NCBI GenBank assembly: GCA_017446745.1
Contig: JAFSQF010000104.1
Coordinates: forward strand, 1-33,163
Origin: Bacteroidales bacterium
GTDB taxonomy: Bacteria; Bacteroidota; Bacteroidia; Bacteroidales; P3
Direction of reading: 5' to 3'
DNA: 33,163 nt
Shown here: piece after piece, positions 12,129-32,830 of the stretch
Layout of the letters: every line of letters begins with the position of its first letter
Position numbering within the stretch: the stretch's first letter is position 1
Notes under the pieces: generated by a model
Seen by the model: only the letters and a program-made list of their open reading frames with translations
Told to the model about the DNA's origin: nothing
Databases searched by the model: none
Program-made: the position numbers and the translations under genes

Positions 12129-12146
12129 ATTGTCGGTTTGGATGAA

Positions 12147-12539: not shown

Positions 12540-12562
12540 AGTGATTGGTGATTAGTGATTAG

Positions 12563-13344: not shown

Positions 13345-13368
13345 AAATACACCTTATGCAAAATATTT

Positions 13369-13399: not shown

Positions 13400-13424
13400 C
13401 AACGTGATATTATAGTTAACGAAT

Positions 13425-14066: not shown

Positions 14067-14090
14067 GCAGTGACTGGTGAATGGTGAATA

Positions 14091-14108
14091 GTGATTGGTG
14101 ATTAGTGA
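14091..14108 (+). repeat. Shared 18-base GTGATTR repeat, copy 2 (copy 1 at 12541-12558)
   Basis: GTGATTGGTGATTAGTGA occurs exactly at 12541-12558 (5' of kal, between atoD and kal) and at 14091-14108 (before gtrA), inside longer runs of GTGA-type heptamers (14070-14108). Both copies lie between tightly spaced genes. The role is unknown. Confidence 0.75.
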
Positions 14109-14128
14109 AAAAAAATGATATCTGAATT

Positions 14129-17105: not shown

Positions 17106-17244
17106 AAGCGAAGTCCTCAAAAGCCCCCAGAATGATACCGTTAAAGCATGGCTGCCGCACTGCCTATAAGCAGAATGGATAGTCACGCACCTCGCCGCTT
17201 TGCAGAATGCACACCTGCTCACGCCGGGACCCGCCGGAAAAACT

Positions 17245-17850
17245 TCAGGCTTTCACCGTGTCTTCCATCAGCGATGATGCGAAGCCGTCGGCGAGCTGCA
17301 CCAGTGCACAGAGGGGATACTTGTCCTTGGCAGCGTTGAGGTTGCCGAGTGCCTCGCGGCTCTGGAACGGCATATCCCACGCCGTCATATGCCAGCGGAT
17401 AGCGGCAATCTCTGCATCGGTCATGTCAAGACCAAGGCGGAGAAGGATAATGGCGCTTTTCTCGCCGTGGCCTAAAGGGAAATTGCTGTAGTCCACGGTG
17501 TAGCCAGGGTATTCCTCCCAGCGTCCGAAGCTGTTCTGGCGTTTCTTGGTCACCTCCTTGTAGACGTCGGACTTGCAGATGTCATGGAGAAGAGTCGCTA
17601 TAATCACGCTGTCCTCAGGCAGTTCATTTTCAAGAGCCGGGTTGAGACTCAATGCGGTGGCTCGCAGACGCATGGCAGCAGTATACACGTTGTAGGAGTG
17701 GTCGGCCAGACCGCCCTCGTAGTTGCCGTGGAAGTTGGTTGATGCCGGCGCCATAAAGAACCCGCTACCCTTGAGCCAGTCCATCACCTCGTCAATACCC
17801 GCGCGATCGGTCTTGTCAAGCAAATCTAATATCTTGTCTTTTGTTGTCAT
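17245..17850 (-). CDS. HD-domain phosphohydrolase
   Basis: The 201-residue protein has the metal-binding pattern of HD hydrolases: His51 in LADHSYNV, His89-Asp90 in IIATLLHDICK, His128 in LGHGEK, and His154 in IRWHMTAWD. Such proteins hydrolyse phosphoester or nucleotide substrates; this subfamily's substrate is not known to me. It is cytoplasmic, with no signal peptide. The gene faces the gtrA-M14-GT2 operon and lies directly upstream of, and divergent from, the BREX island. Its GC-rich codon use matches the backbone rather than the island, so I count it as a host gene and not a BREX component. Confidence 0.82.
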   Translation of the reverse strand: MTTKDKILDLLDKTDRAGIDEVMDWLKGSGFFMAPASTNFHGNYEGGLADHSYNVYTAAMRLRATALSLNPALENELPEDSVIIATLLHDICKSDVYKEVTKKRQNSFGRWEEYPGYTVDYSNFPLGHGEKSAIILLRLGLDMTDAEIAAIRWHMTAWDMPFQSREALGNLNAAKDKYPLCALVQLADGFASSLMEDTVKA

Positions 17851-18112
17851 TGTATGCCATTTAATTGTTCCGTTACAACGCGGGAAAACATTTTTTATTG
17901 TCCTTCATACACTCCGACAACCAAAATCAGTCGTGTGAGCCTTGTCCGTACATCTGTTTCACTACGCCACACATCTCCGGCGGTAGGCATACGGTGCAGC
18001 CCGATTATCGACAGGGTTTGTCATTTTGTACTGATTCACTGTATAAAAATCAAGCGCATCACAATAAAATCACAATGTTGTCGTTATAAAATGATATATT
18101 TTTTTGAATAAA
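17851..18112. other. Intergenic region, no gene recognised
   Basis: I see no convincing ORF, tRNA or conserved RNA in this stretch. It must hold the promoter of the HD gene on the minus strand, but no clear TTTG / TAnnTTTG pair is visible. Composition changes here from the GC-rich backbone to the AT-richer island. Confidence 0.5.
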
Positions 18113-18376
18113 TTAATAAATGATTATCCGCATTTTCCACAAAGAAGCCTCGGAGACGGGTGCAAACCCCAGTGGAGCGCGCAAAGAAGCCCTGCGCGTG
18201 GCATATTATCTTAATAACCCCAGACACACAGAGTGCAGTCTGGGGATCTGTAAATCGAGCCAGTCCCCGCGTCTCGACCCCTGAAAGGGTGATGAGCACC
18301 GCTGAATAAAATCAAATACTGTGAATAAGAGACTCGATCTCAAATTTGGGCATTTTGCGGATAATCATTAAATTAA
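18113..18376. repeat. Inverted-repeat-bounded structured segment upstream of BREX
   Basis: Imperfect ~20-bp inverted repeats at 18113-18132 and 18356-18376 share a perfect 14-base core (AATGATTATCCGCA, 18119-18132; its complement 18356-18369). The segment between holds several stems: CGCGCA/TGCGCG near 18179-18200, CCCCAGAC/GTCTGGGG near 18219-18246, a GGGT-gcaa-ACCC hairpin near 18160-18171, and a possible long-range GAGACGGG with CCCGCGTCTC. CAAAGAAGCC occurs twice (18140-18149, 18182-18191). It could be a MITE-like repeat, a structured RNA or an invertible segment; none is proven. Confidence 0.55.
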
Positions 18377-18382
18377 AATGGT

Positions 18383-18499
18383 ATGGCAAATCTAAATCGA
18401 CTGAAAGTAATGTTAATAGAGCAAAGCATATCGGAATTATTGGACGTAGATATTCGGGATTTGATAGTGAGCACCAAAACTTCCAATAATCAGAACTAA
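18383..18499 (+). pseudogene. Internally deleted XRE-type regulator remnant
   Basis: A 38-codon ORF opens with MANLNRLKVMLIEQ and ends ISELLDVDIRDLIVSTKTSNNQN. The first part resembles the start, and the second part the end, of the small (about 65-75 residue) helix-turn-helix regulators common in Bacteroidota; the DNA-binding middle of about 30-35 residues is missing. It stops 21 bases before brxA in the same direction, the position expected of a BREX locus regulator. An in-frame internal deletion is the simplest reading, leaving a protein that should not bind DNA. Alternatively it is a genuine mini-protein or a leader peptide. Confidence 0.5.
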
Positions 18500-18520
18500 C
18501 TAAACTAATAACGACCATCT

Positions 18521-19162
18521 ATGGCAAACCGAACACTAACCAGTCCCTATTCTGCCTCCATCACAGGATGTGGGTTTATGTACGAGGAGATGAGAGCATT
18601 GTTGCCGATGCTGATGTCTCCCGACAGAGACTCACTTCTGAAAGAGGAACTCCTGACGGGAGAGCATCTGATGATGAGCAGCGAGAGAACCCGTTCCCGT
18701 GCAATTCCTGAATTTGTAAAACGATATAATGCTGTTCCCAAATCCTTTTGGAACTGGTTTCTTGCCCTGAATGACAAGTCCCAGAGGGTGGCAATGTTCT
18801 ATGTGATATTGAAGACTTACAAGATTGTCTTCGACCTTCATATAAATGTAGTCTTGGAACATTGGCGTGGCGTCGACCAGCGTGTCTCCAAGAACGACTT
18901 GATGATGGAGTTTAATGAGATTTCTGCTAAAGATGCCTTCGTGGAGAGTTGGAGCGAGAACACGAAGGACAGAGTTGCATCGGCAGTGTGTTCCGTATTG
19001 AGAAAAGTCGGACTGATGGAGGAAAAGAACTTCGATTTGAAACCGATAGACTTCTCGGACATAGACAGTACATATTATATACAGAACAACGAACTCTGGT
19101 TTTTGGAGGCTTGCTTCCTTGAACCGTATGAGGTGCAAAAGATAAAGGAGGGACAACTATGA
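18521..19162 (+). CDS. brxA: BREX protein BrxA (DUF1819)
   Basis: The 213-residue protein matches the DUF1819/BrxA family in length and layout. It opens with YSASITGCGFMYEEMRALLPML and has the middle signature ERTRSRAIPEFVKRYNAVPKSFW. A helical C-terminus with FDLKPIDFSD and WFLEACFLEPYEVQKI follows. BrxA has a winged-helix-like fold and binds nucleic acid; its exact role in BREX is unsettled. It is the first intact gene of the island, and its stop overlaps the brxB start by ATGA (19159-19162). Codon use is less GC-rich than that of the HD gene upstream. Confidence 0.9.
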   Translation: MANRTLTSPYSASITGCGFMYEEMRALLPMLMSPDRDSLLKEELLTGEHLMMSSERTRSRAIPEFVKRYNAVPKSFWNWFLALNDKSQRVAMFYVILKTYKIVFDLHINVVLEHWRGVDQRVSKNDLMMEFNEISAKDAFVESWSENTKDRVASAVCSVLRKVGLMEEKNFDLKPIDFSDIDSTYYIQNNELWFLEACFLEPYEVQKIKEGQL

Positions 19163-19767
19163 CAATAGACGAGTTATACGAGAAACTACAGAGTCCCCTG
19201 TTTCAAGATACCCCCAACGGAGACCTCAACTATAACTTCTTTGTGTATCAGTATCCGGCAGAGAAAGAGTATGAGATTCGGCAGCAGATAAAGGAGTTCA
19301 AGGAGCAGCTCATCCGTCCCATCAACTATGTCGATGCTTTGACGATGAACATTTTTGAAGAGTTCTGCAACTTCTTGGATGGACAACCTTTTGGCAAACT
19401 GAATCCTTCGTTCCTCAAATACCTCATTGATAAAGATGATACAAATCCAGAAAGCGTAACCAAGACATTGACTAACAAGGCAAACAGTGATGCTTTCTTC
19501 CAGCATATTCACAACAGGATAATTGAGCACATATCCATCAAGGACAATAAGAAGCGTCCATATATCTTCCTGTATGGAATCGGCAGTATGTATCCGTACC
19601 TTCGGACAAATGTGTTTCTGACCAATTATGAGAAGTACAATCGGAGCAGTGATTACAAACTGATTGTCTTCTACCCTGGCAATGTGAATAAAAACACATA
19701 CCACCTTTTCGGAATGCTCAACGATGAGCACACCTATCGTGCAACATTACTTATAAACGACAGATAA
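19159..19767 (+). CDS. brxB: BREX protein BrxB (DUF1788)
   Basis: The 202-residue protein shows the DUF1788 features: an N-terminal NYNFFVYQYPAEKEYEIRQQIKEFKEQL segment and a C-terminal nucleotide-binding-like fold with FLYGIGSMYPYLRTNVFLTNYE. It ends with KLIVFYPGN and HLFGMLNDEHTYRATLL. The family is found almost only in BREX loci and is required for defence in studied type I systems; its biochemical role is not established. Start and stop overlap the brxA stop, and brxC follows after 11 bases, so the three genes form one transcript. Confidence 0.9.
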   Translation: MTIDELYEKLQSPLFQDTPNGDLNYNFFVYQYPAEKEYEIRQQIKEFKEQLIRPINYVDALTMNIFEEFCNFLDGQPFGKLNPSFLKYLIDKDDTNPESVTKTLTNKANSDAFFQHIHNRIIEHISIKDNKKRPYIFLYGIGSMYPYLRTNVFLTNYEKYNRSSDYKLIVFYPGNVNKNTYHLFGMLNDEHTYRATLLINDR

Positions 19768-19778
19768 TAGTTACAGAT

Positions 19779-22700
19779 ATGAAACTAAAAGACTTATACA
19801 ACAGGGATATTGAACGTAAGGTCAATCCGGCAGTGTCGGCTTCCGACTTCGATGAAGAAACCGTACACACCGAAATAGAGGAGTATGTTTTTACAGACGA
19901 AATCATACAGGGCCTCTACAACATCCTTTCGGCTGTGCAGAAGAAAGAGAAGAACCACTGTGGTATATGGATAAACGGATACTTCGGTTCCGGTAAATCC
20001 CACTTCCTCAAATATCTTGACTATTGTCTCTCTCCACAATACGGTCAGCGTGCTTTGGAGAGGCTGATGGAGGCTGTCGAGGAAAGAGACCCATTGCAAC
20101 ATCCGGACAGCAAACTTGATTTGACGGTTGCAGATATGAAAGACCTCATCATCTGGATGAAGGACAATCAGGTTGATACTATCCTCTTCAATATCGGAAC
20201 CGTCCATAATATCAACGGTAACGAGAAGAAGGTCTTCCTTGATGTCTTTTGGGCAGAACTCAATGAATTCCGTGGATACAACAAGTTCAACATTGCACTG
20301 GCTCAACATTTTGAGAAACTGCTTGACAGCAAGGGCAAATTTGATGAGTTCAAGCAGCGTATTGCAGATGACGGATTTGATTGGAACGAACAGGCATCCG
20401 ACCTTGCAGACCAAGAACTGGACTATGTGCTTGACATCGGCAAGGAACTGGTCCCCACGATGACCACAGACATCATCAGGAAACGTATTGTCGAGGACGA
20501 CTCCTACATCAGTGTGGAGACATTTATGAAGGAACTGAAGAGCTTCATCGACGGCAAGGGCAAGAACTACCATCTTCTTTTCTTGGTCGATGAGATTAGT
20601 CAGTTTATTGATGGACGTGGTGGTTTGTTGCTGCAACTCCAAGAAATCGTCACACGGCTGCACGAGGTGTGTGAAGACCGAGTATGGCTTGGTTGCACAG
20701 CACAACAAGACCTCACCGAACTGCTTGATGACTGTAAGATTACAAAGACCAATGAGGATTACGGAAAGATTATGGGTCGTTTCGAGGTCAGAGTTTCTCT
20801 TAAAGGGACCCAGCCAGAGTATATCACCCAGAAACGTATCCTTGACAAGACCGGTGGTGCCGAGATTGAACTGGGGAAACTCTACGAAGAGAAGAAGAAC
20901 GCCATCGACAACCAGTTCCAACTTCCTTCGGGATACAAGAAATTTTCCGACAAGGAGGAGTTTATTGCCTACTATCCCTTTGTTCCCTACCAGTTCAAAC
21001 TGATAATGCAGGTTTTCAACAACTTTGTAGATATCGGGTTTGTTGAACGTGAGGTCAAAGGTAACGAGCGAAGCATCATCAAGGTAACACACGCTACAGC
21101 CAAAATGACGAAAGATGAAGAAGTGGGCAAATTCATTTCGTTTGACCAATTCTTCAATGCAATGTTCCAAGGCAGTCTGATGAATCTCGGACAACGGGCA
21201 ATACAGAACGCCAACGGCATCATCCAAGAATACAAAGACCCCGAATTTGGTCAGAGAGTGGTCAATATACTGTTTATGATATGCTACCTCTCGGAGACAG
21301 ACAAACTACAATTCCCTGCCACTGTCGAGAACATCACGAACCTCTTGATGACGGATGTGGATACACAGAAGTTGTCCATCAAACACGATGTGCAAGAGGT
21401 GCTCGACTATCTCTGTGAGAAGAACATCATCCGTTACGAGTCGAAGAAAGGAACGGCATCGGACTACTACTGCTTCTATACGGAGGATGAAATGGAGGTT
21501 GCCCAACTCATCAAGAACCAACAGGTTGATAATGCCACGATGGCAGAGGAATTGAAAAAGATATTCTTCGACTATATGGGCAATCCATCGAACCGTGAGA
21601 CATACCGTAGCAACAAGTTCTCCATTGCCTGTTTCATAATGGGGAGAAGTTATCTCTCCAACAATGCAGACATCGAGATAGAACTGGTGATGGAAGACGA
21701 TTTCGGAGGCAACTGCCATCAGTATGCACTCCAAAACAAGGCAAACAGATTGTCATTCCTTATAGGACCTCTGTATAATGCAAACAATGCTTTCCGAAAC
21801 GAGTTCTTCAACTTCTGCAAAGTGCAGCAATACTTGAAGACACCTGCATCAAGCGACACGAGGAAGCGGACAATGGACGATTTCAGAAAGCGTGCAAGAG
21901 AGACCTACGACAGCAAGATTGTGCCCGAGTTCAAGAAGATGTTCGACAACTGTGAGGTGGTGTCCAGTCAAGATGTCATCACAGCAAAGCTTGCCACCCT
22001 CAAAGGAAAGGAGCGATACAAGAGTGCATTGGAAAGTCATTTTGAAAACAACTATCCATACGGTCGTTTAGTCACCGACCCGATATTTCCCCGTACAAGT
22101 GACGATTTACGAAAGGCAATCCTCCGTAAGATAAACACAGGCGACTATGAGGGTTTGCATGCAGAATTGACTGACCCGGAGAAACCCGTTGAGAACTACC
22201 TCCTCCAACAAGGACGGGAATTGAGTCTCGGAGACATCACCAAGAAATTCTCGGGTGCTCCCTATGGTTGGAACGAGCTTTGCACGATGTATGTCGTAAA
22301 TGAATTGGTGAGGAGACATAAACGAGACTATTCCTACAACAACGACCCCAACACCGAGACCAAGATTATCGCCACTGCTATGACAACCAGCGACCGGAAC
22401 AAAATCGTTGTCCGTCCGGCACAGGCAATCAGCAGAGACGTTTTGGACAATTTCACTGGCGCTTGGAAAAAGGTGTTTGGATTCAACTCGGCACCATCCA
22501 ACGACAGTAGTGAATTGTTCCGTGGTGCCAAAGAGAAACTGAAAGAGGCTATTGAGAAGATGGGTATATTGAGAGACAATATCTCCAAATATCCCTTTGT
22601 TTCTCCAGTGGTAGAAGCCATTCATCTCTTCGAGGAATGGGAGTCCAAACGAGACCCTGTCCAATTCTTCAATGCCATCGTCCAAGGACAGGACAAAGGC

Positions 22701-23330
22701 AAAGCATTGGTTGATAGATGCAAGGAAGTCAAACAGTTTACCGACGATCAATTGTCCCGTTACATAGAGTTCCTACGGTATATTGACAACAACAAGGAGA
22801 ACTTCGATTTCCTTCCGGACAACAAGAAGTCATCGGCAGAGAAGTTCAAGGAGTTGGTTGATGATGAGACTCCATTTGAACGGATGCCGTCCTACAACAA
22901 GTTGAAGAAAGAGATTGAGGCTGCCTTGAATGAGATTAAGAAAGGTCTGTGTGCAGAGATTGCCGCCAACTACGGGAAAGCATATACCGACCTGCAAGAG
23001 GTGTGTAAGGAGAATGGCGTCTCTGAAGACATCCTCCCCAATCTGCAATCCACCATCACATCCAAGACCAACACCGACAACCTCTATGCACTGAAAGACA
23101 ACCGTTCCACCGACGAGTTCTATACCCATTGGGTGAAGGTGATTCTGGACAAGAAAGATCCCGACGGTGGCGGTAATCCAACGGGCAGGAAGACCGCCAG
23201 CATCACCTTGAACACACGGACCCGGCAGAAACTGACCAACGAAAGCGAGGTGGATGACTACTTGGCACAACTCAAACAACAACTGATGAAACACATCAAC
23301 GACAACGAAGATGTAATGGTTATCAAGTAA
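19779..23330 (+). CDS. brxC: BREX ATPase BrxC
   Basis: At 1183 residues this has the usual BrxC/PglY length. The Walker A motif is FGSGKSHF with Lys73 (GYFGSGKSHFLKY), and Walker B is LLFLVDEISQF with Asp271-Glu272. A sensor-like WLGCTAQQDL follows near residue 307. The C-terminal half is helical and charged, typical of the family. BrxC is the large P-loop ATPase of the BREX complex and is thought to couple nucleotide binding to assembly or DNA recognition with PglX. It starts 11 bases after brxB and ends 7 bases before pglX. No truncation or frameshift is seen. Confidence 0.93.
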   Translation: MKLKDLYNRDIERKVNPAVSASDFDEETVHTEIEEYVFTDEIIQGLYNILSAVQKKEKNHCGIWINGYFGSGKSHFLKYLDYCLSPQYGQRALERLMEAVEERDPLQHPDSKLDLTVADMKDLIIWMKDNQVDTILFNIGTVHNINGNEKKVFLDVFWAELNEFRGYNKFNIALAQHFEKLLDSKGKFDEFKQRIADDGFDWNEQASDLADQELDYVLDIGKELVPTMTTDIIRKRIVEDDSYISVETFMKELKSFIDGKGKNYHLLFLVDEISQFIDGRGGLLLQLQEIVTRLHEVCEDRVWLGCTAQQDLTELLDDCKITKTNEDYGKIMGRFEVRVSLKGTQPEYITQKRILDKTGGAEIELGKLYEEKKNAIDNQFQLPSGYKKFSDKEEFIAYYPFVPYQFKLIMQVFNNFVDIGFVEREVKGNERSIIKVTHATAKMTKDEEVGKFISFDQFFNAMFQGSLMNLGQRAIQNANGIIQEYKDPEFGQRVVNILFMICYLSETDKLQFPATVENITNLLMTDVDTQKLSIKHDVQEVLDYLCEKNIIRYESKKGTASDYYCFYTEDEMEVAQLIKNQQVDNATMAEELKKIFFDYMGNPSNRETYRSNKFSIACFIMGRSYLSNNADIEIELVMEDDFGGNCHQYALQNKANRLSFLIGPLYNANNAFRNEFFNFCKVQQYLKTPASSDTRKRTMDDFRKRARETYDSKIVPEFKKMFDNCEVVSSQDVITAKLATLKGKERYKSALESHFENNYPYGRLVTDPIFPRTSDDLRKAILRKINTGDYEGLHAELTDPEKPVENYLLQQGRELSLGDITKKFSGAPYGWNELCTMYVVNELVRRHKRDYSYNNDPNTETKIIATAMTTSDRNKIVVRPAQAISRDVLDNFTGAWKKVFGFNSAPSNDSSELFRGAKEKLKEAIEKMGILRDNISKYPFVSPVVEAIHLFEEWESKRDPVQFFNAIVQGQDKGKALVDRCKEVKQFTDDQLSRYIEFLRYIDNNKENFDFLPDNKKSSAEKFKELVDDETPFERMPSYNKLKKEIEAALNEIKKGLCAEIAANYGKAYTDLQEVCKENGVSEDILPNLQSTITSKTNTDNLYALKDNRSTDEFYTHWVKVILDKKDPDGGGNPTGRKTASITLNTRTRQKLTNESEVDDYLAQLKQQLMKHINDNEDVMVIK

Positions 23331-23337
23331 AGATGTT

Positions 23338-26217
23338 ATGGATACAAGTCAGATAAAACGATTTGCCATCGAGGCTCGAAATATACTGAAACAAGGGGTG
23401 ATAAACCGTATCGCCGCCTTTGGATTTAATGACAAAGGTGAGGTTGAAGAACGGAACAAACCACAGCGTTTGCAAGGGAACACCCTCTTTATGGGACAAT
23501 TGTATGATGAGAATTTCTATGGCAAGTGGATGGCACTTTACAACCGCGTTCAAACCAAAGGAATAAAGGAGGTCTATGAAGAGGCTGCCTACACTTGGTT
23601 CAACCGCCTGATGGCAATCCGTATTATGGAGAAGAACGGTTTTACCGAACCAGTCCTTGCCTTCGACGATGACCGTTTCCGTATCCCTCGTATTGTCTCC
23701 AATGCCCGTGCCGGACAGTTCTCCGTTGATGCATCAGACCGCGAGAAACTGTCCGAACTGCTGATGGACGATACAAAGACCACCGAGCAATTCACACTGC
23801 TTATCACCTCGTTCTGTCATACCAATCCCATAATCAACAACTGCTTCGGGGGCGTATCCGACTACACCGAAATTCTCCTTCCGACCAATATTCTCTCGGA
23901 GGGTGGTTTTGTGGATTTGCTCAACCACACGGCATTTATCACCGATGATGATTACAGGCAGTCGGAACTCATCGGTTGGCTATACCAGTTCTACATCAGC
24001 GAGAAGAAGGATGAAGTGTTCGCTTCGTTCAAGGGTGGCAAGAAAGCCGGGGCAGAAGACATCCCCGCCGCCACACAGATATTCACCCCCAACTGGATTG
24101 TGAAGTATATGGTACAGAACACAGTGGGCAGAATCTTCTTAGACAACAACCCCGACAGTGACTTAAAGGGCAAGTGGAAATATCTTGTAGAACCATCTAC
24201 ACCAACACCTGATGACTGCATCTTCCACTATGACGACCCCAAGGAACTGACGATGGCTGACCTTGGATGTGGCTCTGGGCACATCCTCAACGAGGGATTC
24301 GACATCCTCTACGACATCTACATCGAGGAAGGGTACAGCAGAAAACAAGCTGTGGAGAATATTTTCAAGTACAATTTGACTGGTGTAGACCTCGACACAC
24401 GTGCCAAGCAATTGGCGACCTTTGCTCTGATGATGAAGGCATGTCAGAAGGATGACTCGTTCTTGGACTGCCACGTGATGCCCAACGTGCTGGATATGCC
24501 GGATGTCGATAGATACTCTTTCATCGAGGCTGACGGTCACTTCTGTTGTGCCTATTCTTTGGAATGGGACTATGAACAAAAAGAGAAAATCCATCTTGAA
24601 CTTGTCAGGGCATTTGAACTCCTAAAACAAGCCCACAACCTTGGCTCCATTATGAAGTTCGACCTTTCTAATTTCACAAAAAAATATATCAAACGTTGTG
24701 TGGAACTATATGAGGAAGACCCCAAATTCCCAAATCCTTTTGCCACCCTTATCCACGCCTACAAACTCATTCTTGCTCTTACCCAAAAGTATGCCTCATT
24801 GGTGATGAACCCGCCCTATATGGGTTCTGGTAATATGAATGCAGAGTTGAGCCTGTATGTGGCAACAAACTATCCAGAAGGTAAGGCAGATTTGATGACT
24901 GTTTTTATGGAAAAAGCTTGGGGCTCAATGTTACCACTGGGTTATTTTGCAATGATAAATCTGCCTTCGTGGATGTTTATTGCATCTTTTATTGAGTTAC
25001 GAAAAACATTGGTTAATAATTTCCAGATAGAGTCTCTATTGCATCTCGGAAGAGGCATATTTGGGTCGGATTTTGGGACAGTTGCTTTTGTTGTCAAGAA
25101 TACCATCCCAAATAATAGTGGTATTTATCGAAGATTATTCAAAGAACACGTACAGGTTCGTTCCGTTGAGCAAATCCAACATCTTTTCCTTGAAAAACAG
25201 TATGGACGATATGTTACTTGTCAATCGATTTTCAATCACATTAAGGGAACTCCAATTGGATATTGGGCAACTCCTCAAATAATTAAAGCATTCTCTGGCA
25301 AACTATTGTCTTCATTTGGGGTAACAAGAAAAGGAATGTACACAGGGTGTAATGCATTATATGTACGTTCTTGGACAGAAGTATCCGATACAAAAGTGGG
25401 ATTTCATTACACAGTAGACACTTATAAGGAAAGTGGGAAAAAATGGTATCCTTATGCTAATGGCGGTGAATTCAGAAAATGGTATGGTAATTTCAATGAT
25501 GTGGTATTATGGGAAAATGATGGTGAAGAATTAAAAGCTGCAAGAAATAGTAAAGGGAAAATGCAAGCTGGATGTTTCAATGTGGACTACATTTTTAAGG
25601 AAGGAATCTTTTGGTCATCCATCTCCGCAAAGCAATATTCAATGAAATATTTGCCACAAGGACATCTATTTAGTTCTGCTTCAAACGCCTGGTTTCCCTA
25701 CGACCTTGAAACAATCGAATATATTCTTGCTAATGTAAACTCAAAAGTATCAAGGGAAATAATGAATATTTTGAATCCAACATTAAATTATAATGCAGGA
25801 GATATCATTAATATCCCAATAATCATTGAGAACAAGCCAATAATAGAATCTTTTACAAAGGAAAATATTTCCATCTCCAAGCAGGATTGGGATGCCCACG
25901 AAACCTCTTGGGATTTTGAGACCAACGAGTTGCTGAAAATTGATGACGATACCTATCATTCCTTTACCGATGCCCACGAAGATGAAATACGAGAAAGATA
26001 CGGGAGAATAGATGGTGACGGGTATCTGTTGGAAGCATTGGTGGAATGCTACAAGGAGAAATGGGAGGAGAACTTTCACCAACTCCACGCCAACGAAGAA
26101 GAACTCAACCGCCAGTTTATCGAAATTTACGGCTTGCAAGACGAACTGACACCAGATGTGCCGTTGGATGAAATCACCATCCTCCAACAGGGTGAAATCA
26201 GTATTGAGGACGACTAA
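23338..26217 (+). CDS. pglX: BREX adenine methyltransferase PglX, main part (split gene)
   Basis: The 959-residue protein carries the SAM-binding motif DLGCGSGH (residues 308-315) and the catalytic N6-adenine motif Asn491-Pro-Pro-Tyr494 (VMNPPYMGSGNMN). PglX methylates host DNA at a non-palindromic site, marking it as self. The family is usually about 1200 residues. This ORF ends at EIYGLQDELTP...DEITILQQGEISIEDD, where longer homologues continue. The missing end is encoded 1.3 kb downstream at 27546-28289. The region for residues about 515-840, expected to hold target recognition, is much more AT-rich than the flanks. Whether this part is active alone is unknown. Confidence 0.92.
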   Translation: MDTSQIKRFAIEARNILKQGVINRIAAFGFNDKGEVEERNKPQRLQGNTLFMGQLYDENFYGKWMALYNRVQTKGIKEVYEEAAYTWFNRLMAIRIMEKNGFTEPVLAFDDDRFRIPRIVSNARAGQFSVDASDREKLSELLMDDTKTTEQFTLLITSFCHTNPIINNCFGGVSDYTEILLPTNILSEGGFVDLLNHTAFITDDDYRQSELIGWLYQFYISEKKDEVFASFKGGKKAGAEDIPAATQIFTPNWIVKYMVQNTVGRIFLDNNPDSDLKGKWKYLVEPSTPTPDDCIFHYDDPKELTMADLGCGSGHILNEGFDILYDIYIEEGYSRKQAVENIFKYNLTGVDLDTRAKQLATFALMMKACQKDDSFLDCHVMPNVLDMPDVDRYSFIEADGHFCCAYSLEWDYEQKEKIHLELVRAFELLKQAHNLGSIMKFDLSNFTKKYIKRCVELYEEDPKFPNPFATLIHAYKLILALTQKYASLVMNPPYMGSGNMNAELSLYVATNYPEGKADLMTVFMEKAWGSMLPLGYFAMINLPSWMFIASFIELRKTLVNNFQIESLLHLGRGIFGSDFGTVAFVVKNTIPNNSGIYRRLFKEHVQVRSVEQIQHLFLEKQYGRYVTCQSIFNHIKGTPIGYWATPQIIKAFSGKLLSSFGVTRKGMYTGCNALYVRSWTEVSDTKVGFHYTVDTYKESGKKWYPYANGGEFRKWYGNFNDVVLWENDGEELKAARNSKGKMQAGCFNVDYIFKEGIFWSSISAKQYSMKYLPQGHLFSSASNAWFPYDLETIEYILANVNSKVSREIMNILNPTLNYNAGDIINIPIIIENKPIIESFTKENISISKQDWDAHETSWDFETNELLKIDDDTYHSFTDAHEDEIRERYGRIDGDGYLLEALVECYKEKWEENFHQLHANEEELNRQFIEIYGLQDELTPDVPLDEITILQQGEISIEDD

Positions 26218-26223
26218 ACAAAC

Positions 26224-27453
26224 ATGGCTATGGTACAAGATAATGAAATACAGAAATCGAAGTTTGTCAGTTCGCACGATGTGTATCTTGACAACGATTA
26301 TGCGGACTGGATTGCCGACATCAAGCATCGCTACCGCACGGCGCAGGTGAAAGCCGCCGTAAGGGTGAATGCCGAGAAGCTGTTGTTCAACTGGATGCTT
26401 GGCCGCGACTTGGTGCAGAGAAAAGCAGAGGAACGTTGGGGCGCTGGAGTGGTGGAACAGGTGAGTCTCGACCTGAGGCGGGCGTTTCCCGATGAGGAAG
26501 GATTCTCCAAGTCCAACCTGTGGTTTATGAAGAAATGGTATCTCTTCTATTCGGGAACTGAAGCATCCATAATACTGCAACAGGTTGTTGCAGAATTAGA
26601 AAAAATCGATGCAGGCATTGATAAAAAACTCTACCAAGTGGGTAGAGAATTGGAGGATAAAAAACTCTACCAAGCTGGTGGAGAATTTCCGCTACCTTTT
26701 GCAATGGTTCCGTGGCGGCACCATATAGAGATAATCAACAGGTGCAAGAGTGTGCAGGAGGCGTTGTTCTACATAGGGAAGACTGTCGAGCAGGGATTGA
26801 GCCGCAACGCCCTAATCAACTGCATAAAATCCAATCTGTATGAACACCAGGGCAAGATCGTCAACAATTTTTCCGACCACCTGCCGGCTCTCCAAAGCCA
26901 ACTGGTGCAAGAGGTATTAAAAGAGAACTACGACTTCGGCTTTGCCACCGTCGGCCACGAGATATACGACGAGGCCGAGCTACAAGAGGCCTTAATGAGC
27001 AACGTCACCGACCTGCTGTTAGAGATGGGCAACGGTTTTGCTTTCATCGGCAAGCAGAAAGAATTGGTGGTAGGCGGTCGCTCGCGCAGGATAGACCTTC
27101 TGTTCTATCACATACGTTTGCGGTGCTATGTGGTCTGCGAGCTGAAAGCGAAGCCTTTTGAACCAGAATATGCAGGCAAGCTGAACTTCTACGTCAACGC
27201 TGTCGACGAACTGTTAAAGTCTGGCGACGACAACCCAACCATAGGACTACTCATCTGTTCCGACATGAACAAGACTGATGTGCAGTGGTCGTTTAAAGGG
27301 ATAGAGACCCCTATGGGCGTTGCCACCTACAACAATATCAGAATAAAAGACGTGTTGCCGATGGATGAGCTGAAAGAACGCATCAAATTGTTGCAAAAAG
27401 AACTGAAAACCACACGTCGAATACTGGAGAGAAAAACAGCCAATAGAGAATAG
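26224..27453 (+). CDS. DUF1016 / YhcG-type PD-(D/E)xK nuclease inserted in pglX
   Basis: The 409-residue protein has an N-terminal DUF1016 helical domain (residues about 18-125, including MLGRDLVQRKAEERWGAGVV and SKSNLWFMKKWYLFYS). A C-terminal PD-(D/E)xK nuclease domain follows: Asp291 in RRIDLLFYH, then Glu306-Leu-Lys308 in VCELKAKPFEPEYAGKLNFYV, all catalytic residues present. Genes of this family often sit inside restriction-modification and other defence loci of Bacteroidota. Here it begins 6 bases after the first pglX ORF and is followed by the rest of pglX, so it interrupts that gene. An in-frame 36-base duplication expands the inter-domain linker at residues 133-156. Its DNA target and any role in BREX are unknown. 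Confidence 0.9.
   Translation: MAMVQDNEIQKSKFVSSHDVYLDNDYADWIADIKHRYRTAQVKAAVRVNAEKLLFNWMLGRDLVQRKAEERWGAGVVEQVSLDLRRAFPDEEGFSKSNLWFMKKWYLFYSGTEASIILQQVVAELEKIDAGIDKKLYQVGRELEDKKLYQAGGEFPLPFAMVPWRHHIEIINRCKSVQEALFYIGKTVEQGLSRNALINCIKSNLYEHQGKIVNNFSDHLPALQSQLVQEVLKENYDFGFATVGHEIYDEAELQEALMSNVTDLLLEMGNGFAFIGKQKELVVGGRSRRIDLLFYHIRLRCYVVCELKAKPFEPEYAGKLNFYVNAVDELLKSGDDNPTIGLLICSDMNKTDVQWSFKGIETPMGVATYNNIRIKDVLPMDELKERIKLLQKELKTTRRILERKTANRE
26620..26691 (+). repeat. In-frame 36-base tandem repeat in DUF1016 gene
   Basis: Two adjacent 36-base units (26620-26655, 26656-26691) differ at about 6 positions. They encode DKKLYQVGRELE and DKKLYQAGGEFP. The first contains the perfect hairpin CTCTACC-aagtg-GGTAGAG. 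It lies in the linker between the two protein domains. Confidence 0.8.
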
Positions 27454-27545
27454 CTATCGACAATGCGACTGATACAAAATGTGACGTAACCTAAAATTTA
27501 CGCGACATTTACGCAAAAGATACGCAATAATAATACATAGAGAAG

Positions 27546-28289
27546 ATGGATACCGACAACAATACACACCAACATATAGTTTGGCATGATGACGTGCTGA
27601 TGAAACAACTTATCAGTTACGCTATAGGCTGTATGATGGGGCGTTACCGCCTTGACAAACCCGGTCTCTGGATTGCCCATCAAAACCCCACGTCAGAAGA
27701 GATTTGCACCTACCAATATAAGGGCAATAATTACACCATCGACGATGACGGCATTATGCCACTGATGAGCCGTGACTGTGGTTTCGATGACAACGGGGTG
27801 CTTCGCTTCGCTGAGTTCCTCCGTGTGGCATTTGGAGAAGAGCACCTCACCGAGAACCTCAACTATATAGAAGGGTGTCTCGGCAAGACCGTAGAGGACT
27901 ACTTGAAGAAGGATTTCTGGAAAGACCATAAGAAGATGTACCAGAACCGCCCCATCTACTGGTTGTTCAGCAGCAAGAGGGGGGCATTCCAAGTCCTCGC
28001 CTATATGCATCGTATGAACCCCTACACGGTGGAACAGATACGAAACAAATACCTGCTCCCACACATTGAGTATATCAACGGCAGGATTGCCGAGATGGAG
28101 GTAAAGGAGGCAACCCTTTCCACGTCGGAGAGAAGAACCCTCTCCAAACTGAAAGAGAACCTTGCCGAATGTCAGGAATACCACGAGCGGCTGCACTTGG
28201 TGGCCGACCAGCAGATTGGATTCGACTTGGACGATGGTGTGGTGGTCAACTACGCCAAATTTGGTGATGTGGTAGCAAAAATCAAATAG
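27546..28289 (+). CDS. PglX C-terminal part encoded separately
   Basis: The 247-residue protein starts MDTDNNTHQHIVWHDDVLMKQLISYAIGC. It continues with MMGRYRLDKPGLWIAHQ, RFAEFLRVAFGEEHLTENLNYIEGCLGKTVEDYLKKDFW, RPIYWLFSSKRGAFQVLAYMHRM and the ending IGFDLDDGVVVNYAKFGDVVAKIK; as I recall them, these are C-terminal motifs of full-length type I PglX. Added to the 959 residues upstream it gives about 1206, the normal PglX size. A stop codon in frame at 27531-27533 shows it is a true separate ORF, and ATG 27546 is the first start. The pglZ gene begins one base after its stop. It probably assembles with the main PglX part in trans. Confidence 0.85.
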   Translation: MDTDNNTHQHIVWHDDVLMKQLISYAIGCMMGRYRLDKPGLWIAHQNPTSEEICTYQYKGNNYTIDDDGIMPLMSRDCGFDDNGVLRFAEFLRVAFGEEHLTENLNYIEGCLGKTVEDYLKKDFWKDHKKMYQNRPIYWLFSSKRGAFQVLAYMHRMNPYTVEQIRNKYLLPHIEYINGRIAEMEVKEATLSTSERRTLSKLKENLAECQEYHERLHLVADQQIGFDLDDGVVVNYAKFGDVVAKIK

Positions 28290-28290
28290 G

Positions 28291-30801
28291 ATGACACAAG
28301 ATAAGATATACAACTACTTTGAACGTAATCCGAGACTTCACGTCCTGTTCGTCTTCGACCCATTCGGAGACTTGGAGGCAGAGCTTTCAGAATGGACTTG
28401 GAAGGATGGATATCGTTATGTAGCCTTCGATGGAGGATGGTTTAAGACCAAATATGCTATTGAACACGACTGGAAAGACGAAAAGGTCATATTACTGTTT
28501 CGACAGAACAATCCGTCGAACAACCAGCAGTCGATGTTGGATTTCCCCTTGATGGATGTGCTTGCAGCCAATATGGATTTGAAGGTGGATGACTATGCCG
28601 CCTTCATACAACAGTACCACATAGTACCAAGTATGGCTCCCTTTGTCCAAAACCACATAACGGAACTGCAGCAAACCAGAGTAACCAAGATACTGGGGCC
28701 ATACTACAAAACCGCCGACTTCACGATGGATGTGGCTCATCGGGGATTGTTGTCGGCATACCTTGGAGCAGACAAACTCCTTGACTGGAATATGATTATC
28801 ATCAAACTCCTTATTCAGGATGTCAATTCCGGTCTTGGTACTGTCACCAGCAAATTCCAGCGTAACCCAACCACGATGAATGCTCTCAATTCCAAACTGG
28901 ACGACATCTTCGGCGTGAAATACGAATACAACTCACTAGGCTATAAGATGCAGAAGGTGGCCGAATGCCTGAAATACAATGTTATCACACAGTCATTGTC
29001 GGTCAATACCTCAAAAGACGAATACCGCAAATACAAGGTGGAGAGTGCATACGCACTCCAACAAATGAACAGTTTGTGGGAATATCCTCTCAACAAGGTG
29101 CAGCGGAAACAGTTTGAGGATGCCGTGTCGGTTTTGGCAGAAGGAGTCAAGGACGAAGAGATACTCAAATGCTACGGTGTTGATGCCAACTACTACAAGA
29201 TTACAACTAAGATGGCTGTTCCGATAGTGATGGAACTCTTGAAGAAAGCATCGAATGAGCCTGCCTTGGTTGCTGAAAAAACAAGAGAACTCGACCTGAG
29301 GATGGGAGAAGACAACCCCGTCCAACCCATCATTGCTTTCGTTGGCAATATCGCCAACTACTACAAATGTGCCGGTGAGATGGGGACACTATGCCTCAAC
29401 ACCCCATCCGAGTATTTGGCGAAATACCAGACATCATTCTACCTAACAGACACATACTACCGTCATATTTTGGAGTCATTCAAGGCGTTGGACAAATCCA
29501 CGGAACAATACGACACCTATCATCAGGCAAAGGTGGAGATAGACAGACACTATGCAACGCTGACGAACAACCTCAACCTGGAATGGGTCAAATGTCTGGT
29601 TGCAAAAGGTACGAAACTCAACCAGATGCCTGACTACAAGGCACAGCAGAATTTCTATCGGGACAACCGTAACAAGGATGTCAAGCAGGTGGTCATCATC
29701 TCCGATGCCCTCCGTTACGAGGTGGCAAAGGAACTGCTTGGGGAACTTGCTAAAGAGAAACATATCGCCACATTGGACTGCTGCATTGCCATGCTTCCCA
29801 CCGAGACCAAGTTTTGCAAGAAGGCCCTATTCCCACACAGCAAGTTGGAGTTGAAAGAGGCAGATATGCTAGTGAATGGATCTGACCTTACAACCACCTC
29901 CCAACGGTCGGACTTCCTAAACGGATATGTGAAAGGAGCCACCTGTGTAAGTTTCGAGGATGTGGAAGGAAACAACCAGCAGACCAATCGAGAGTTGTTC
30001 AAGAGGCCGCTTGTGTATGTGATCCACAACACCATAGACGAGGCTGGACACAACGGTGACATCATAGACGCCTGCCGGAAATCCATCCAGCAAATCGCAA
30101 AGCTGGTGAAAAGTCTCCACGCCTCGTTCAATGTGGCCAACGTCATCGTCACCAGCGACCATGGATTCCTCTACAACGACTTAGAATTTGAAGAGAAAGA
30201 CAAACAGACAATCACGGAGGAAGTCATCGAAAAGAAGACCCGATACTATCTCACTAAGTCGGACGAGGAGGTTCATGGTGTGGCCAAGTTCAGACTGGCT
30301 GATGTCTCTGGGATGGAAGAGGATGTTTTTGTCGCTGTGCCGACTGGGACAAACCGATTCGCTGCCGCAGGTAGTTATCAATTTGCACACGGTGGTGCTG
30401 CACTTCAAGAGATTGTGGCCCCCGTCATATACAGCAAGTTGAAAAAGGATGACACCAAGGAGAAGACCAGAGTGCTGCTGATGAACAAGAAACTCTCGAT
30501 GGTGTCCAGCAGGGTCAAGTTCCAGCTCATCCAAAGCGATGCAGTCTCGATGGAGGTGCAAGGAAGGACGATAGTTTGTGGCATATACAACAATGACGAA
30601 CTCTTGACAGCAGTGAAGGAGATTGTGATGGACAGCAGTGACGGAAACGCACAGAACCGTTTCTTTGATGTGGAGCTGACACTGAACAAACCCACCGATG
30701 CAAGCATCCTCCAATTGAAGATTTACGATGTTGAGGATGACCTGAACCCTCTCATAAAAGAGACCGTGAAAAACAACACACTTATTGAACAAGATTTCTA
30801 A
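28291..30801 (+). CDS. pglZ: BREX phosphatase-like protein PglZ (type A)
   Basis: The 836-residue protein has an N-terminal recognition part (DKIYNYFERNPRLHVLFVFDPFGDLEAEL), a helical middle, and a C-terminal alkaline-phosphatase-superfamily domain. The metal-binding region is VVIISDALRYEVAKELL with Asp472, followed by the second metal motif VIVTSDHGFLYND with Asp623-His624. PglZ is a core BREX protein that binds metal and, in studied homologues, shows phosphodiesterase or nuclease activity. It is directly adjacent to the PglX C-terminal ORF (one-base gap) and precedes brxL by 16 bases. Length and motifs are complete. Confidence 0.92.
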   Translation: MTQDKIYNYFERNPRLHVLFVFDPFGDLEAELSEWTWKDGYRYVAFDGGWFKTKYAIEHDWKDEKVILLFRQNNPSNNQQSMLDFPLMDVLAANMDLKVDDYAAFIQQYHIVPSMAPFVQNHITELQQTRVTKILGPYYKTADFTMDVAHRGLLSAYLGADKLLDWNMIIIKLLIQDVNSGLGTVTSKFQRNPTTMNALNSKLDDIFGVKYEYNSLGYKMQKVAECLKYNVITQSLSVNTSKDEYRKYKVESAYALQQMNSLWEYPLNKVQRKQFEDAVSVLAEGVKDEEILKCYGVDANYYKITTKMAVPIVMELLKKASNEPALVAEKTRELDLRMGEDNPVQPIIAFVGNIANYYKCAGEMGTLCLNTPSEYLAKYQTSFYLTDTYYRHILESFKALDKSTEQYDTYHQAKVEIDRHYATLTNNLNLEWVKCLVAKGTKLNQMPDYKAQQNFYRDNRNKDVKQVVIISDALRYEVAKELLGELAKEKHIATLDCCIAMLPTETKFCKKALFPHSKLELKEADMLVNGSDLTTTSQRSDFLNGYVKGATCVSFEDVEGNNQQTNRELFKRPLVYVIHNTIDEAGHNGDIIDACRKSIQQIAKLVKSLHASFNVANVIVTSDHGFLYNDLEFEEKDKQTITEEVIEKKTRYYLTKSDEEVHGVAKFRLADVSGMEEDVFVAVPTGTNRFAAAGSYQFAHGGAALQEIVAPVIYSKLKKDDTKEKTRVLLMNKKLSMVSSRVKFQLIQSDAVSMEVQGRTIVCGIYNNDELLTAVKEIVMDSSDGNAQNRFFDVELTLNKPTDASILQLKIYDVEDDLNPLIKETVKNNTLIEQDF

Positions 30802-30817
30802 TGATAGATATTGAAGT

Positions 30818-32830
30818 ATGGATAACTTGGAACAAAAAATACTGGAACTCTTTGAAGGCAAGGTGGTACGGAAAGACCTTGCATTCTCCGTCAAGGGAAA
30901 CCTGCCGGTTCCAACATACGTCCTTGAATACCTCTTGGGACAGTATTGTGCAACAGATGACGAAAATGTCATTGCCGAAGGCATAGAGATAGTCAGGACC
31001 ATCATCAAGAACAACTATGTGCATCGTGCAGAAGCAGAGATAGTCAAAGGCAAAATCAAGGAAGCAGGCAGATACCGTATCATCGACAAGGTGAATGTGG
31101 TGCTGAACGACAGAGCAAATGTGTATGAGGCATCTTTCGCCAATCTCGGTTTGACCAAGATACCCATTGTGGATAGTATCGTCGTTCAGAACCCCAAGTT
31201 GATGAGTGGAAACGGGGTGTGGTCAATCGTCAATCTTTCATACGACACCACTGACGACAGTCCGAACCGTTGGACAATCGAGACACTGAAACCCATCCAG
31301 ATTTCCAGAGTTGATGTAGATAGTTATGTGGCACAACGAAACAAGTTCTCCACAGAGGAGTGGATGGACTTCTTGGTGCATACTGTCGGTCTTAATCCCA
31401 ATGTACTCAATGAGCGTGAGAAGATGCTGGTCATTGCCCGTCTCCTCCCCCACGTAGAGAACAACTACAACTTTGTAGAGTTGGGTCCCAAAGGCACGGG
31501 TAAATCCCACGTCTTTCAGGAGCTGTCTCCATACGGTGTGCTTGTCTCTGGTGGAGATGTGACATCTGCCCGTCTATTCGTCCGTATTTCTGGCAGCAAG
31601 GAATACTTGGGATTGGTCGGTTATTGGGATGTGGTTGCTTGGGATGAATACGAGCATCAACCGGGCAAGAAGGTCGAGCCAGTGATGATTGACACGATGC
31701 AGAACTATCTTGCAAACAAATCCTTCAACAGAGGCAAAGCCACACACGAGGCATCTGCTTCGATGGCTTTCGTGGGAAACACCAAGCATACGGTTGAATA
31801 TATGCTCAAAAACAGTCATCTGTTTGAGAGTATCCCCGAAGGTTTTGTCAAGGGTGCTTTCCTCGACCGTATCCACCTGTACAATCCTGGGTGGGAGGTC
31901 AAGACTTTGAGAAAGGACTCCTTCTCCAAATCGTATGGTCTGATTACAGACTATATCTCTGCCATACTGCACGAACTCCGTAACAGAGACTACTCTGCAA
32001 TGTTGGGTGAATATGTGAAGTTTGACAGTTCTTTGTCAGAACGTGACCATTTGGCCATTAGAAAAACTTTCTCCGGTATGGTGAAGCTCCTGTACCCTGA
32101 CGGCAATCTAACCCACGAGGAAGCCCTGAAACTTGTCGAATTTGCAGCCGAAGGACGTAAGCGTGTCAAAGACCAGCTTTACATCATAGACTCTACATTC
32201 AAAGAGAACCCAGCCTTGTTCAGATACACCATCCTCAAAGGTGGGGATGTCCGATATGTGGAGACATTGGAGAAGTTGAACAACAATATGCCGGATGCCA
32301 TACCAGAGGAACCGAAAGCGGAGAAGACTGCCGAGTCCGAGGAACCTACAAAGACAGTTCGACTGTCCGAGAAGACCGTCAGTATAAGGATGGGACAGAT
32401 GGGAGTGTCGTACAAATCACTGTTTGCAGACTATCTGGCCAATGCCAACGTCATCACCATCGAAGACCCGTTCATCCGTACCTTCTGGCAGATTAGGAAC
32501 TTATCGGAGTTTCTGTCTATGCTGGTTGAGACAAGAAGTGTTGAGGGTTTGAAGATACACTTGAAGACCTCTTCGGATGACGATTCCAAAGCAGCCGAAG
32601 TAATAGATGACCTTACGGATATCAAGGATGAGATGGAGTCTCTGGGAGTTGATTTCTCCTTTGAGTTCGCCGATTTTCACGACAGGTGCATCCTTACGGA
32701 TAAAGGATGGAAAATTGTGCTTGGTCGAGGATTGGATATATACGAACCCTACGGCAAGTTCTCCATCGCCAACAGCCAACAGTCCCGAAGGAAATGTAAG
32801 GACTTTAATGTTACGTATGTTCGGTACTGA
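30818..32830 (+). CDS. brxL: BREX Lon-like AAA+ protein BrxL
   Basis: At 670 residues this is close to the usual ~690. The Walker A motif is LGPKGTGKSHVF with Lys229; Walker B is WDVVAWDEYEH. The AAA+ core is followed by the long region with GRKRVKDQLYIIDSTFKENP. The C-terminus resembles Lon-type beta structure (LGRGLDIYEPYGKFS, then a C-terminal FNVTYVRY). BrxL binds DNA as a ring-shaped oligomer and is needed for phage restriction in some but not all type I systems; methylation does not need it. It is the last gene of the island on the plus strand. The first ATG in frame is 30818; an overlapping ATG at 30801 is in another frame. Confidence 0.92.
   Translation: MDNLEQKILELFEGKVVRKDLAFSVKGNLPVPTYVLEYLLGQYCATDDENVIAEGIEIVRTIIKNNYVHRAEAEIVKGKIKEAGRYRIIDKVNVVLNDRANVYEASFANLGLTKIPIVDSIVVQNPKLMSGNGVWSIVNLSYDTTDDSPNRWTIETLKPIQISRVDVDSYVAQRNKFSTEEWMDFLVHTVGLNPNVLNEREKMLVIARLLPHVENNYNFVELGPKGTGKSHVFQELSPYGVLVSGGDVTSARLFVRISGSKEYLGLVGYWDVVAWDEYEHQPGKKVEPVMIDTMQNYLANKSFNRGKATHEASASMAFVGNTKHTVEYMLKNSHLFESIPEGFVKGAFLDRIHLYNPGWEVKTLRKDSFSKSYGLITDYISAILHELRNRDYSAMLGEYVKFDSSLSERDHLAIRKTFSGMVKLLYPDGNLTHEEALKLVEFAAEGRKRVKDQLYIIDSTFKENPALFRYTILKGGDVRYVETLEKLNNNMPDAIPEEPKAEKTAESEEPTKTVRLSEKTVSIRMGQMGVSYKSLFADYLANANVITIEDPFIRTFWQIRNLSEFLSMLVETRSVEGLKIHLKTSSDDDSKAAEVIDDLTDIKDEMESLGVDFSFEFADFHDRCILTDKGWKIVLGRGLDIYEPYGKFSIANSQQSRRKCKDFNVTYVRY

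What the first reader, a model, noticed from the sequence alone, without database searches (positions are those of the whole stretch)
23338..28289. BREX PglX is split in two, with a complete nuclease gene between the parts
The first pglX ORF (959 residues) has both methyltransferase motifs but stops where type I PglX normally continues. Its C-terminal ~240 residues appear as a separate ORF at 27546-28289, with an in-frame stop just upstream. Between them lies an intact DUF1016 PD-(D/E)xK nuclease (D291, E306, K308). The two parts sum to about 1206 residues, a normal PglX. All three genes remain open and tightly packed (6 and 92 base gaps), which argues for a working arrangement rather than decay. 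A two-piece methyltransferase carrying an embedded nuclease could couple modification and cleavage in a way not described for BREX.
Basis: partly seen in the sequence, partly recalled or inferred. Interest (0 to 1): 0.78.

Follow-up and report, generated by a model that had tools for sequence, protein, structure and literature searches.

The report
BREX methyltransferase gene split around nuclease
In this phage-defence (BREX) operon the DNA-marking enzyme is encoded as two separate proteins with the gene of a likely DNA-cutting enzyme placed exactly at the joint, and the same break appears to have arisen several times in related bacteria, often with defence genes in the gap, so it looks like a working design and not a broken gene.

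Summary
Observation confirmed. The window holds a type 1 BREX operon whose pglX is two reading frames, 959 and 247 aa. They match contiguous, non-overlapping stretches of full-length PglX (NCBIfam positions 1-960 and 972-1209 of 1210). An intact DUF1016/YhcG PD-(D/E)xK nuclease gene lies between them. The break falls in a short variable hinge behind the spacer helices, before the conserved C-terminal metal-site domain.

The split recurs. Six further Bacteroidales loci break at the same hinge. Trees of both halves need five changes of state; one clade is rejected (AU p 9e-43, 1e-4). Four of the seven loci carry DUF1016; 0 of 18 fused loci with brxC, pglX and pglZ do. C-parts of three other split lineages are constrained (dN/dS 0.06-0.11; the window's own is too diverged to measure). 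Splits at two other PglX boundaries exist: in a genus of the same phylum, with DUF1016, reverse transcriptase, SIR2-HerA or Schlafen-like genes between, and in Collinsella. DUF1016 sits between hsdM and hsdS in 4 of 15 other contexts, one in this genome.

Best reading: a two-subunit PglX that reassembles, its fission site a slot for auxiliary effectors. Coupled modification and cleavage is untested.

The parts
18521..19162 (+). brxA
   Evidence: PF08849 BrxA, 7e-25
19159..19767 (+). brxB
   Evidence: PF08747 BrxB, 3.5e-22
19779..23330 (+). brxC
   Evidence: NF033441 BREX_BrxC, 766 bits over cut-off 400
23338..26217 (+). pglX N-part: N-terminal domain, methyltransferase (motif I GCGSG from residue 310, NPPY from 491), target recognition domain, spacer helices; ends ITILQQGEISIEDD
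   Evidence: NF033452 1-960/1210, 826 bits; PDB 9ewz 1-900; motif positions; domain names by alignment to the published structures
26224..27453 (+). DUF1016/YhcG-family PD-(D/E)xK nuclease gene inside the split
   Evidence: PF17761 + PF06250; PADLOC PDC-S02; D291/E306/K308 invariant in four split-associated copies
27454..27545 (+). 92-base intergenic stretch before the C-part, 35% G+C
27546..28289 (+). pglX C-part: C-terminal metal-site / winged-helix and coiled-coil region as a separate subunit
   Evidence: NF033452 972-1209/1210, 256 bits; PDB 9ewz 945-1195; D66, D68, D82, Y169 (aligned by hand with BrxX D997, D999, D1012, Y1113) invariant in 25 rows
28291..30801 (+). pglZ
   Evidence: PF08665 1.6e-34; TIGR02687 259 bits, just under its cut-off of 270
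30818..32830 (+). brxL with a C-terminal phospholipase-D-like (HKD-type) domain
   Evidence: PF13337, PF20442, PF16565; TIGR02688 533 bits

Best explanation
A type 1 BREX system whose PglX/BrxX methyltransferase is a two-subunit enzyme. The N-subunit holds the N-terminal, methyltransferase, target-recognition and spacer parts; the C-subunit is the conserved metal-site/winged-helix/coiled-coil domain, which in fused BrxX contacts DNA beside the recognition site. The two are encoded in one operon and most likely reassemble without a covalent bond into a normal PglX that joins BrxB, BrxC and PglZ. The fission lies in a variable hinge, has most likely arisen several times, and its gap serves as a slot in which auxiliary defence genes are carried and co-expressed with the methyltransferase. 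Here the cargo is a DUF1016 PD-(D/E)xK nuclease, most likely an auxiliary restriction effector, as is presumed here for hsdM-DUF1016-hsdS type I loci. Shown: anatomy, contiguity, recurrence, at least four changes of state forced by starred branches, constraint on C-subunits of other split lineages, cargo diversity. Inferred: direction (fused to split), reassembly, methylation activity, and any contact between nuclease and PglX.
For: Contiguous parts. Same hinge split in 7 rows of a 33-row Bacteroidales clade and in 0 of the 16 rows outside it; in 5 of the 6 others both ends of the break are on the contig. C-part tree 5 changes (4 forced by starred branches), N-part tree 5 changes (5 forced); one-clade AU p 8.8e-43 and 1.25e-4. 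L073 nests among fused relatives in both trees (C-part 90% identical to a fused one). dN/dS of split against fused C-parts 0.06-0.09, between two split ones 0.11; fused against fused 0.03-0.06. DUF1016 in 4/7 split loci and 0/18 fused loci with brxC, pglX and pglZ all fetched (Fisher 0.003; 0/14 within the clade, 0.006; chosen after seeing the data). In L020 the three genes overlap by 8 and 4 nt; in L073 DUF1016 and the C-part overlap by 23 nt, first ATG taken. A genus of the same phylum is split at the methyltransferase | recognition boundary, in 1 of 4 loci with DUF1016 between. DUF1016 between hsdM and hsdS in 4 of 15 contexts opened, one in the window's own genome.
Against: No biochemistry; no structure could be predicted (tool off). 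No dN/dS for the window's own C-part (dS saturated). Cargo is not always a nuclease: L072 carries DUF3791/DUF3990/DUF6078, L069 a DUF6078-like gene, and in L071 the insert looks decayed with a Fic-like_C fragment. dN/dS of split pairs is somewhat higher than that of fused pairs. DUF1016 is common in the order (34 of 60 genomes), so its presence alone is weak. The DUF1016 copies of L073 and L020 are sisters (100/99), so recruitments may be three and not four (with 3/7 against 0/14, Fisher 0.026). Tree counts cannot tell gain of the split from loss. One C-part remnant exists (L041, 153-aa frame). A paper on Salmonella PglX could not express its larger C-terminal domain alone (PMC11341690, passages).
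Confidence: 0.68

Rival explanations
1. Neutral slot: the hinge merely tolerates insertions. PglX works as two pieces, but the genes in between are passengers of defence-island turnover with no functional link to PglX.
For: Cargo varies and is once seemingly decayed; accessory genes also sit on either side of fused pglX in related operons; DUF1016 is common and mobile, and the window copy's nearest relative among those compared stands beside an integrase gene, not in BREX.
Against: DUF1016 found inside splits in 4/7 loci and in no slot of 18 fused operons, plus once at another fission point; the same family sits between hsdM and hsdS.
Confidence: 0.3
2. The nuclease is specifically coupled to the split PglX: it binds one or both parts and cleaves unmodified BREX sites, turning BREX into a restriction-modification-like system.
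For: Repeated placement of DUF1016 between modification and recognition/DNA-binding parts in both BREX and type I loci; active-site residues intact.
Against: No contact shown; PglZ is reported to be a nuclease of type 1 BREX (PMC12205998, title in listing); the gap also carries genes with no nuclease family match.
Confidence: 0.3
3. Decay: pglX was disrupted by an insertion and the BREX operon is inactive, or relies on a pglX elsewhere.
For: Interrupted pglX genes are known and have been read as needing a functional copy from elsewhere (PMC9716671 passages); the C-part is preceded by a 92-base, 35% G+C gap.
Against: No second pglX in the own genome, 92% complete; start and stop lie exactly at a hinge with no conserved residue lost; recurrence and constraint in other split lineages.
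Confidence: 0.06
4. Phase-variable pglX: the two pieces are products of site-specific recombination, and a fused form exists in the population.
For: pglX shuffling with recombinases is described for other BREX loci (recalled from Goldfarb 2015; not held).
Against: No inverted repeats and no direct repeat flanking the insert at the settings used; no recombinase among the ten operon-region proteins scanned, 17207-32830; single copies of each part. Genes beyond the contig end at 33163 are unseen.
Confidence: 0.04

Closest known systems
Type 1 BREX with fused PglX/BrxX (E. coli HS, Salmonella; PDB 9ewz, 8c45)
   Same: Six core genes in order brxA-brxB-brxC-pglX-pglZ-brxL; PglX domains, catalytic motifs and metal ligands kept
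   Different: PglX encoded as two proteins, with a nuclease gene between them
Type I restriction loci with DUF1016 between hsdM and hsdS
   Same: DUF1016 gene between the methyltransferase gene and a DNA-recognition/binding partner; found in the same order and in the same genome
   Different: Here the second part is PglX's terminal domain without the target recognition domain; partner genes are BREX; no hsdR found in the operon
Auxiliary/backup nucleases of BREX (Rakesh and Krishnan 2026, PMC12839542; abstract, part 1 of section 35 and passages seen)
   Same: PD-(D/E)xK, Schlafen and other effectors inside BREX operons; BrxL with HKD domain
   Different: The parts seen do not mention a split BrxX or cargo placed inside it; 'split', 'YhcG' and 'DUF1016' have 0 occurrences in its main text. 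Its supplementary tables were not available to me
pglX in two truncated genes in Antarctic cyanobacterial MAGs (PMC9716671, passages seen)
   Same: Two partial pglX genes that together make the full length
   Different: Read there as not functional without a full pglX; the passages name no break point, cargo or recurrence
PADLOC PglX models of about 600 aa (PDLC02516, 593; PDLC02525, 607)
   Same: Their lengths and matched ranges fit halves of PglX, so pieces may have been met when that library was built (inference)
   Different: These halves would break at the methyltransferase/recognition boundary, not at the window's hinge

Membership tests
Type 1 BREX | Core genes brxA, brxB, brxC, pglX, pglZ, brxL in one operon | tested here: met
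   BrxC 766 bits/cut-off 400, BrxL 533/329, PglX N-part 826/500; the C-part alone (256) is under that cut-off; PglZ 259 bits is just under TIGR02687's 270 but matches PF08665 and PADLOC PglZ
Type 1 BREX | Site-specific N6-adenine methylation by PglX | not testable with these tools
   Motif I GCGSG and NPPY present; no methylome data
PglX/BrxX | All domains of the type 1 enzyme present | tested here: met
   Two ORFs together cover NF033452 1-1209 of 1210, with 11 model positions unaligned at the break
PglX/BrxX | One polypeptide (usual, not defining) | tested here: not met
   Stop at 26215-26217; C-part starts at 27546
DUF1016/YhcG PD-(D/E)xK nuclease | Both Pfam domains and D...ExK active site | tested here: met
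DUF1016/YhcG PD-(D/E)xK nuclease | DNA cleavage | not testable with these tools
   Listings were seen; no paper on it was opened
Type I restriction-modification | hsdM, hsdS and hsdR genes | tested here: not met
   No Methylase_S or HsdR family among the ten operon-region proteins scanned, 17207-32830; only a weak MTase_I match of the PglX N-part (PADLOC, 1.1e-6). Resemblance is of gene order only
Phase-variable pglX | Second pglX copy, recombinase or flanking inverted repeats | tested here: not met
   contig ends at 33163, so genes beyond are unseen

The most novel reading that the evidence does not exclude
PglX fission sites are evolved docking slots: BREX repeatedly splits its methyltransferase at domain hinges so that a nuclease or other effector made between the parts is built into the complex, giving BREX interchangeable effector modules and a direct methylate-or-cut choice like that of type I restriction enzymes.
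Probability: 0.2. Interest if true: 0.88.

Novelty: new variant of a known kind. Interest (0 to 1): 0.62.

Why it matters
How BREX destroys or blocks unmodified phage DNA, and how BrxX is licensed to methylate, are open. Natural two-piece PglX proteins mark which joints can be cut, offer a natural boundary for expressing the C-terminal domain apart (a larger C-terminal construct failed for the Salmonella protein, PMC11341690, passages), and point to auxiliary effectors that may act through PglX. The repeated use of one nuclease family between modification and recognition genes in both BREX and type I loci suggests a shared functional logic that can be tested. It also warns annotators not to call such pglX genes broken.

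Tried and rejected
Duplicate C-terminus: rejected (no similarity between parts better than E=1.2). Complete shorter PglX: not supported; relatives whose frames are complete are fused proteins of about 1140-1450 aa in which both parts align. One split inherited by all: rejected by both trees. One DUF1016 lineage travelling with split pglX: not supported; among 19 copies the window's groups with one beside an integrase gene and L103's with an hsd-associated one, while L073 and L020 are sisters. Phase variation: no flanking repeats. Structure prediction of the C-part was planned but the tool is off, so autonomy of the domain rests on alignment to solved structures. Plasmids: of the 40 of 273 and 60 of 268 records listed, most matches lie under a gene named pglX. 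I opened two annotated as hypothetical: Tenacibaculum looks like a frameshift (two overlapping frames, no insert), Collinsella is split with an insert. In that 199-aa insert an RNGFAH string resembles a HEPN RNase motif (recalled; no family match).

Literature: ten searches. No paper of the library holds both PglX and DUF1016. No title or start of abstract listed describes pglX split around another gene; the lists were capped. I opened four papers, in passages or sections only. Goldfarb 2015 is not held.

Counts; 27 loci, of which 5 split, 20 fused, 1 cut by the contig end (L038), 1 remnant (L041) (states); 9 of 393 genomes with a match, 1 split (window); 15 of 399, 1 split (G583), 13 long frames (one matched only in part), 1 fragment; 6 of 104, 1 split (G397); 8 of 201, splits G399 and G583; its genomes overlap those; 26 of 395 genomes, 27 matches: the window, ten frames of 504-665 aa (six opened), 16 long ones. 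Of the 18 fused loci in the DUF1016 count (L043, which repeats L042, dropped) four lie outside the 33-row clade (L012, L013, L014, L040); ten further fused loci with less DNA also have none. C-part tree: rows with incomplete C-parts were left out; N-part tree has no row for L019. DUF1016 contexts: 11 of the many matches, mostly from the top of the list, plus four of the own genome; Pfam was run on neighbours in six of these 15, picked after looking at the frames.
Full report
Anatomy. The window (whole contig C35 of an unnamed draft genome) carries a type 1 BREX operon on the + strand: brxA, brxB, brxC, pglX N-part, DUF1016, pglX C-part, pglZ, brxL. The N-part (959 aa) ends ITILQQGEISIEDD; the C-part (247 aa) begins MDTDNNTHQHIVWHDD. 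In close fused relatives the text runs ITILQQGEISI-(short variable linker)-IVWHDDVLMKQLISYAVG or near it, so the break removes no conserved residue: it replaces a linker by a stop and a start.

Where the break falls. Against solved BrxX/PglX the N-part aligns to residue 900 and the C-part from 945 of 1205 (9ewz), or from 966 of 1225 (8c45). The Salmonella paper puts two spacer helices at 850-960 (PMC11341690, passages); the BREX survey puts a winged helix and coiled coil behind the spacer (PMC12839542, passages). The E. [quoted passage not shown] I mapped the four side chains by hand on the alignment to D66, D68, D82, Y169, which are invariant in 25 C-parts, split and fused. So the C-subunit is the domain after the spacer.

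Recurrence. Related loci from genome contigs, viral contigs and whole-genome searches gave six more loci broken at this hinge: L020, L022/L073, L019/L068, L033/L072, L039/L071, L069. For L019 only the C-part side is on the contig. A 49-row C-part tree needs five changes between split and fused, four forced by starred branches; a 34-row N-part tree needs and forces five. A single clade is rejected in both. L073 sits among fused relatives in both trees. Direction (fused to split) is inferred from fused forms being the rule in and outside the clade; the counts themselves cannot tell gain from loss.

Constraint. Pairwise dN/dS over the C-part: split against nearest fused 0.06-0.09 (L073 with three fused rows, L068 with one), two split ones 0.11 (L072, L069), four fused pairs 0.03-0.06. 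Three pairs, the window's among them, have saturated dS and give no value. These C-subunits are therefore kept as protein, perhaps slightly relaxed; for the window this is by analogy.

Cargo. DUF1016 in the window, L020, L073 and (YhcG_C part, contig-cut) L019; L019 also has Schlafen AlbA_2 and Fic-like_C pieces; L072 has DUF3791, DUF3990, DUF3791, DUF6078; L069 a frame like L072's DUF6078 protein (by eye, no family search); L071 a seemingly decayed stretch with Fic-like_C. No DUF1016 in 18 fused loci with brxC, pglX and pglZ all present, nor in ten with less DNA (Fisher 0.003 and 0.0007; 0.006 for the 14 within the clade; chosen after seeing the data). The D...ExK residues are intact in all four copies. 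The copies are 26-40% identical to each other, while the C-parts of the same loci are 62-64% identical to the window's.

Other fission points. In one genus of the same phylum (code g261) pglX is often two genes of about 600 aa, broken at the methyltransferase | recognition hinge. In four loci with both halves on the contig the cargo is DUF1016 plus a UG5-nitrilase-type reverse transcriptase (L103), an AlbA_2/ATPase/Fic-like_C gene (L104), an ATPase/Fic-like_C gene without detected AlbA_2 (L105), and a SIR2-HerA pair plus a 131-aa frame (L106). Two genomes of that genus have fused frames of 1210 and 1241 aa. Collinsella aerofaciens plasmid OY725717 breaks between the spacer helices (N ends ETSWDFKRNPLV, C begins before NEEELNR) around a 199-aa gene. 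L108, a far relative, has two slightly overlapping 665-aa halves and no cargo.

Parallel with type I loci. Of 15 other DUF1016 contexts fetched, four are hsdM-DUF1016-hsdS by Pfam (L116, L119, L121, and L125 in the window's own genome; in L119 and L125 one small extra frame also lies in the interval) (Pfam run on six contexts). The gene thus stands between modification and DNA-recognition parts in two systems. This supports 'works like', not membership: no hsdR or hsdS family was found among the BREX operon proteins scanned.

Mechanism. Most likely N- and C-subunits reassemble, as in fused PglX where the C-terminal domain holds the DNA beyond the recognition site (PMC11842806, passages), and join BrxB, BrxC and PglZ. 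The DUF1016 protein is co-expressed and probably adds cleavage of incoming DNA. Whether it docks on PglX is open; the cargo's diversity argues that the slot is general and that coupling, if any, is cargo-specific.

Verdict. Its mechanistic claim is plausible but untested. Auxiliary nucleases in BREX and pglX in two pieces are each in print; their union, with repeated fission at domain hinges and defence genes in the gap, I did not find in the searches made, which cover open-licence papers only.

Noticed in passing
L069 4730-8698: The pglX N-part of genome G583 carries an in-frame insertion of about 360 aa at the spacer tip, with repeated VRQECRTS/QHSCCT-like strings (probably coding-read REP palindromes) and a stretch resembling a REP-associated tyrosine transposase (labels recalled, no family search).
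   Followed up: partly
window 25138-25887: The target recognition stretch of pglX has 35% G+C against 45-46% on both sides, as if exchanged from elsewhere.
   Followed up: partly
window 30818-32830: BrxL carries a C-terminal phospholipase-D-like domain (PF16565), fitting the HKD-type BrxL described in PMC12839542.
   Followed up: no
L103-L106: In genus g261 the gap between the pglX halves holds different defence-type genes (UG5-nitrilase reverse transcriptase, SIR2-HerA, Schlafen-like): a nested defence slot.
   Followed up: partly
L076 4897-5496: Collinsella insert: 199 aa with no Pfam or PADLOC match and an RNGFAH string reminiscent of HEPN RNases (recalled motif).
   Followed up: partly
window 26620-26687: Two copies (91%) of a 32-bp direct repeat inside the DUF1016 gene, within DUF1016_N at an insertion relative to the copies of L020 and L073.
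   Followed up: no
G000, contigs C2, C35, C40, C66, C114: The host genome has several DUF1016 genes (six matches over the Pfam cut-off, the window's included), one between hsdM and hsdS, one beside a Fic gene.
   Followed up: partly
L026, L030: Some related BREX operons carry two fused pglX genes in tandem.
   Followed up: no
window 1-17100: Flank holds chromosome-type genes (efflux, ABC-2 transporters, LytTR regulator, carboxypeptidase with Por sorting tail, glycosyltransferase) at 55% G+C against 41-49% for the BREX genes, fitting acquisition of the operon by transfer.
   Followed up: no
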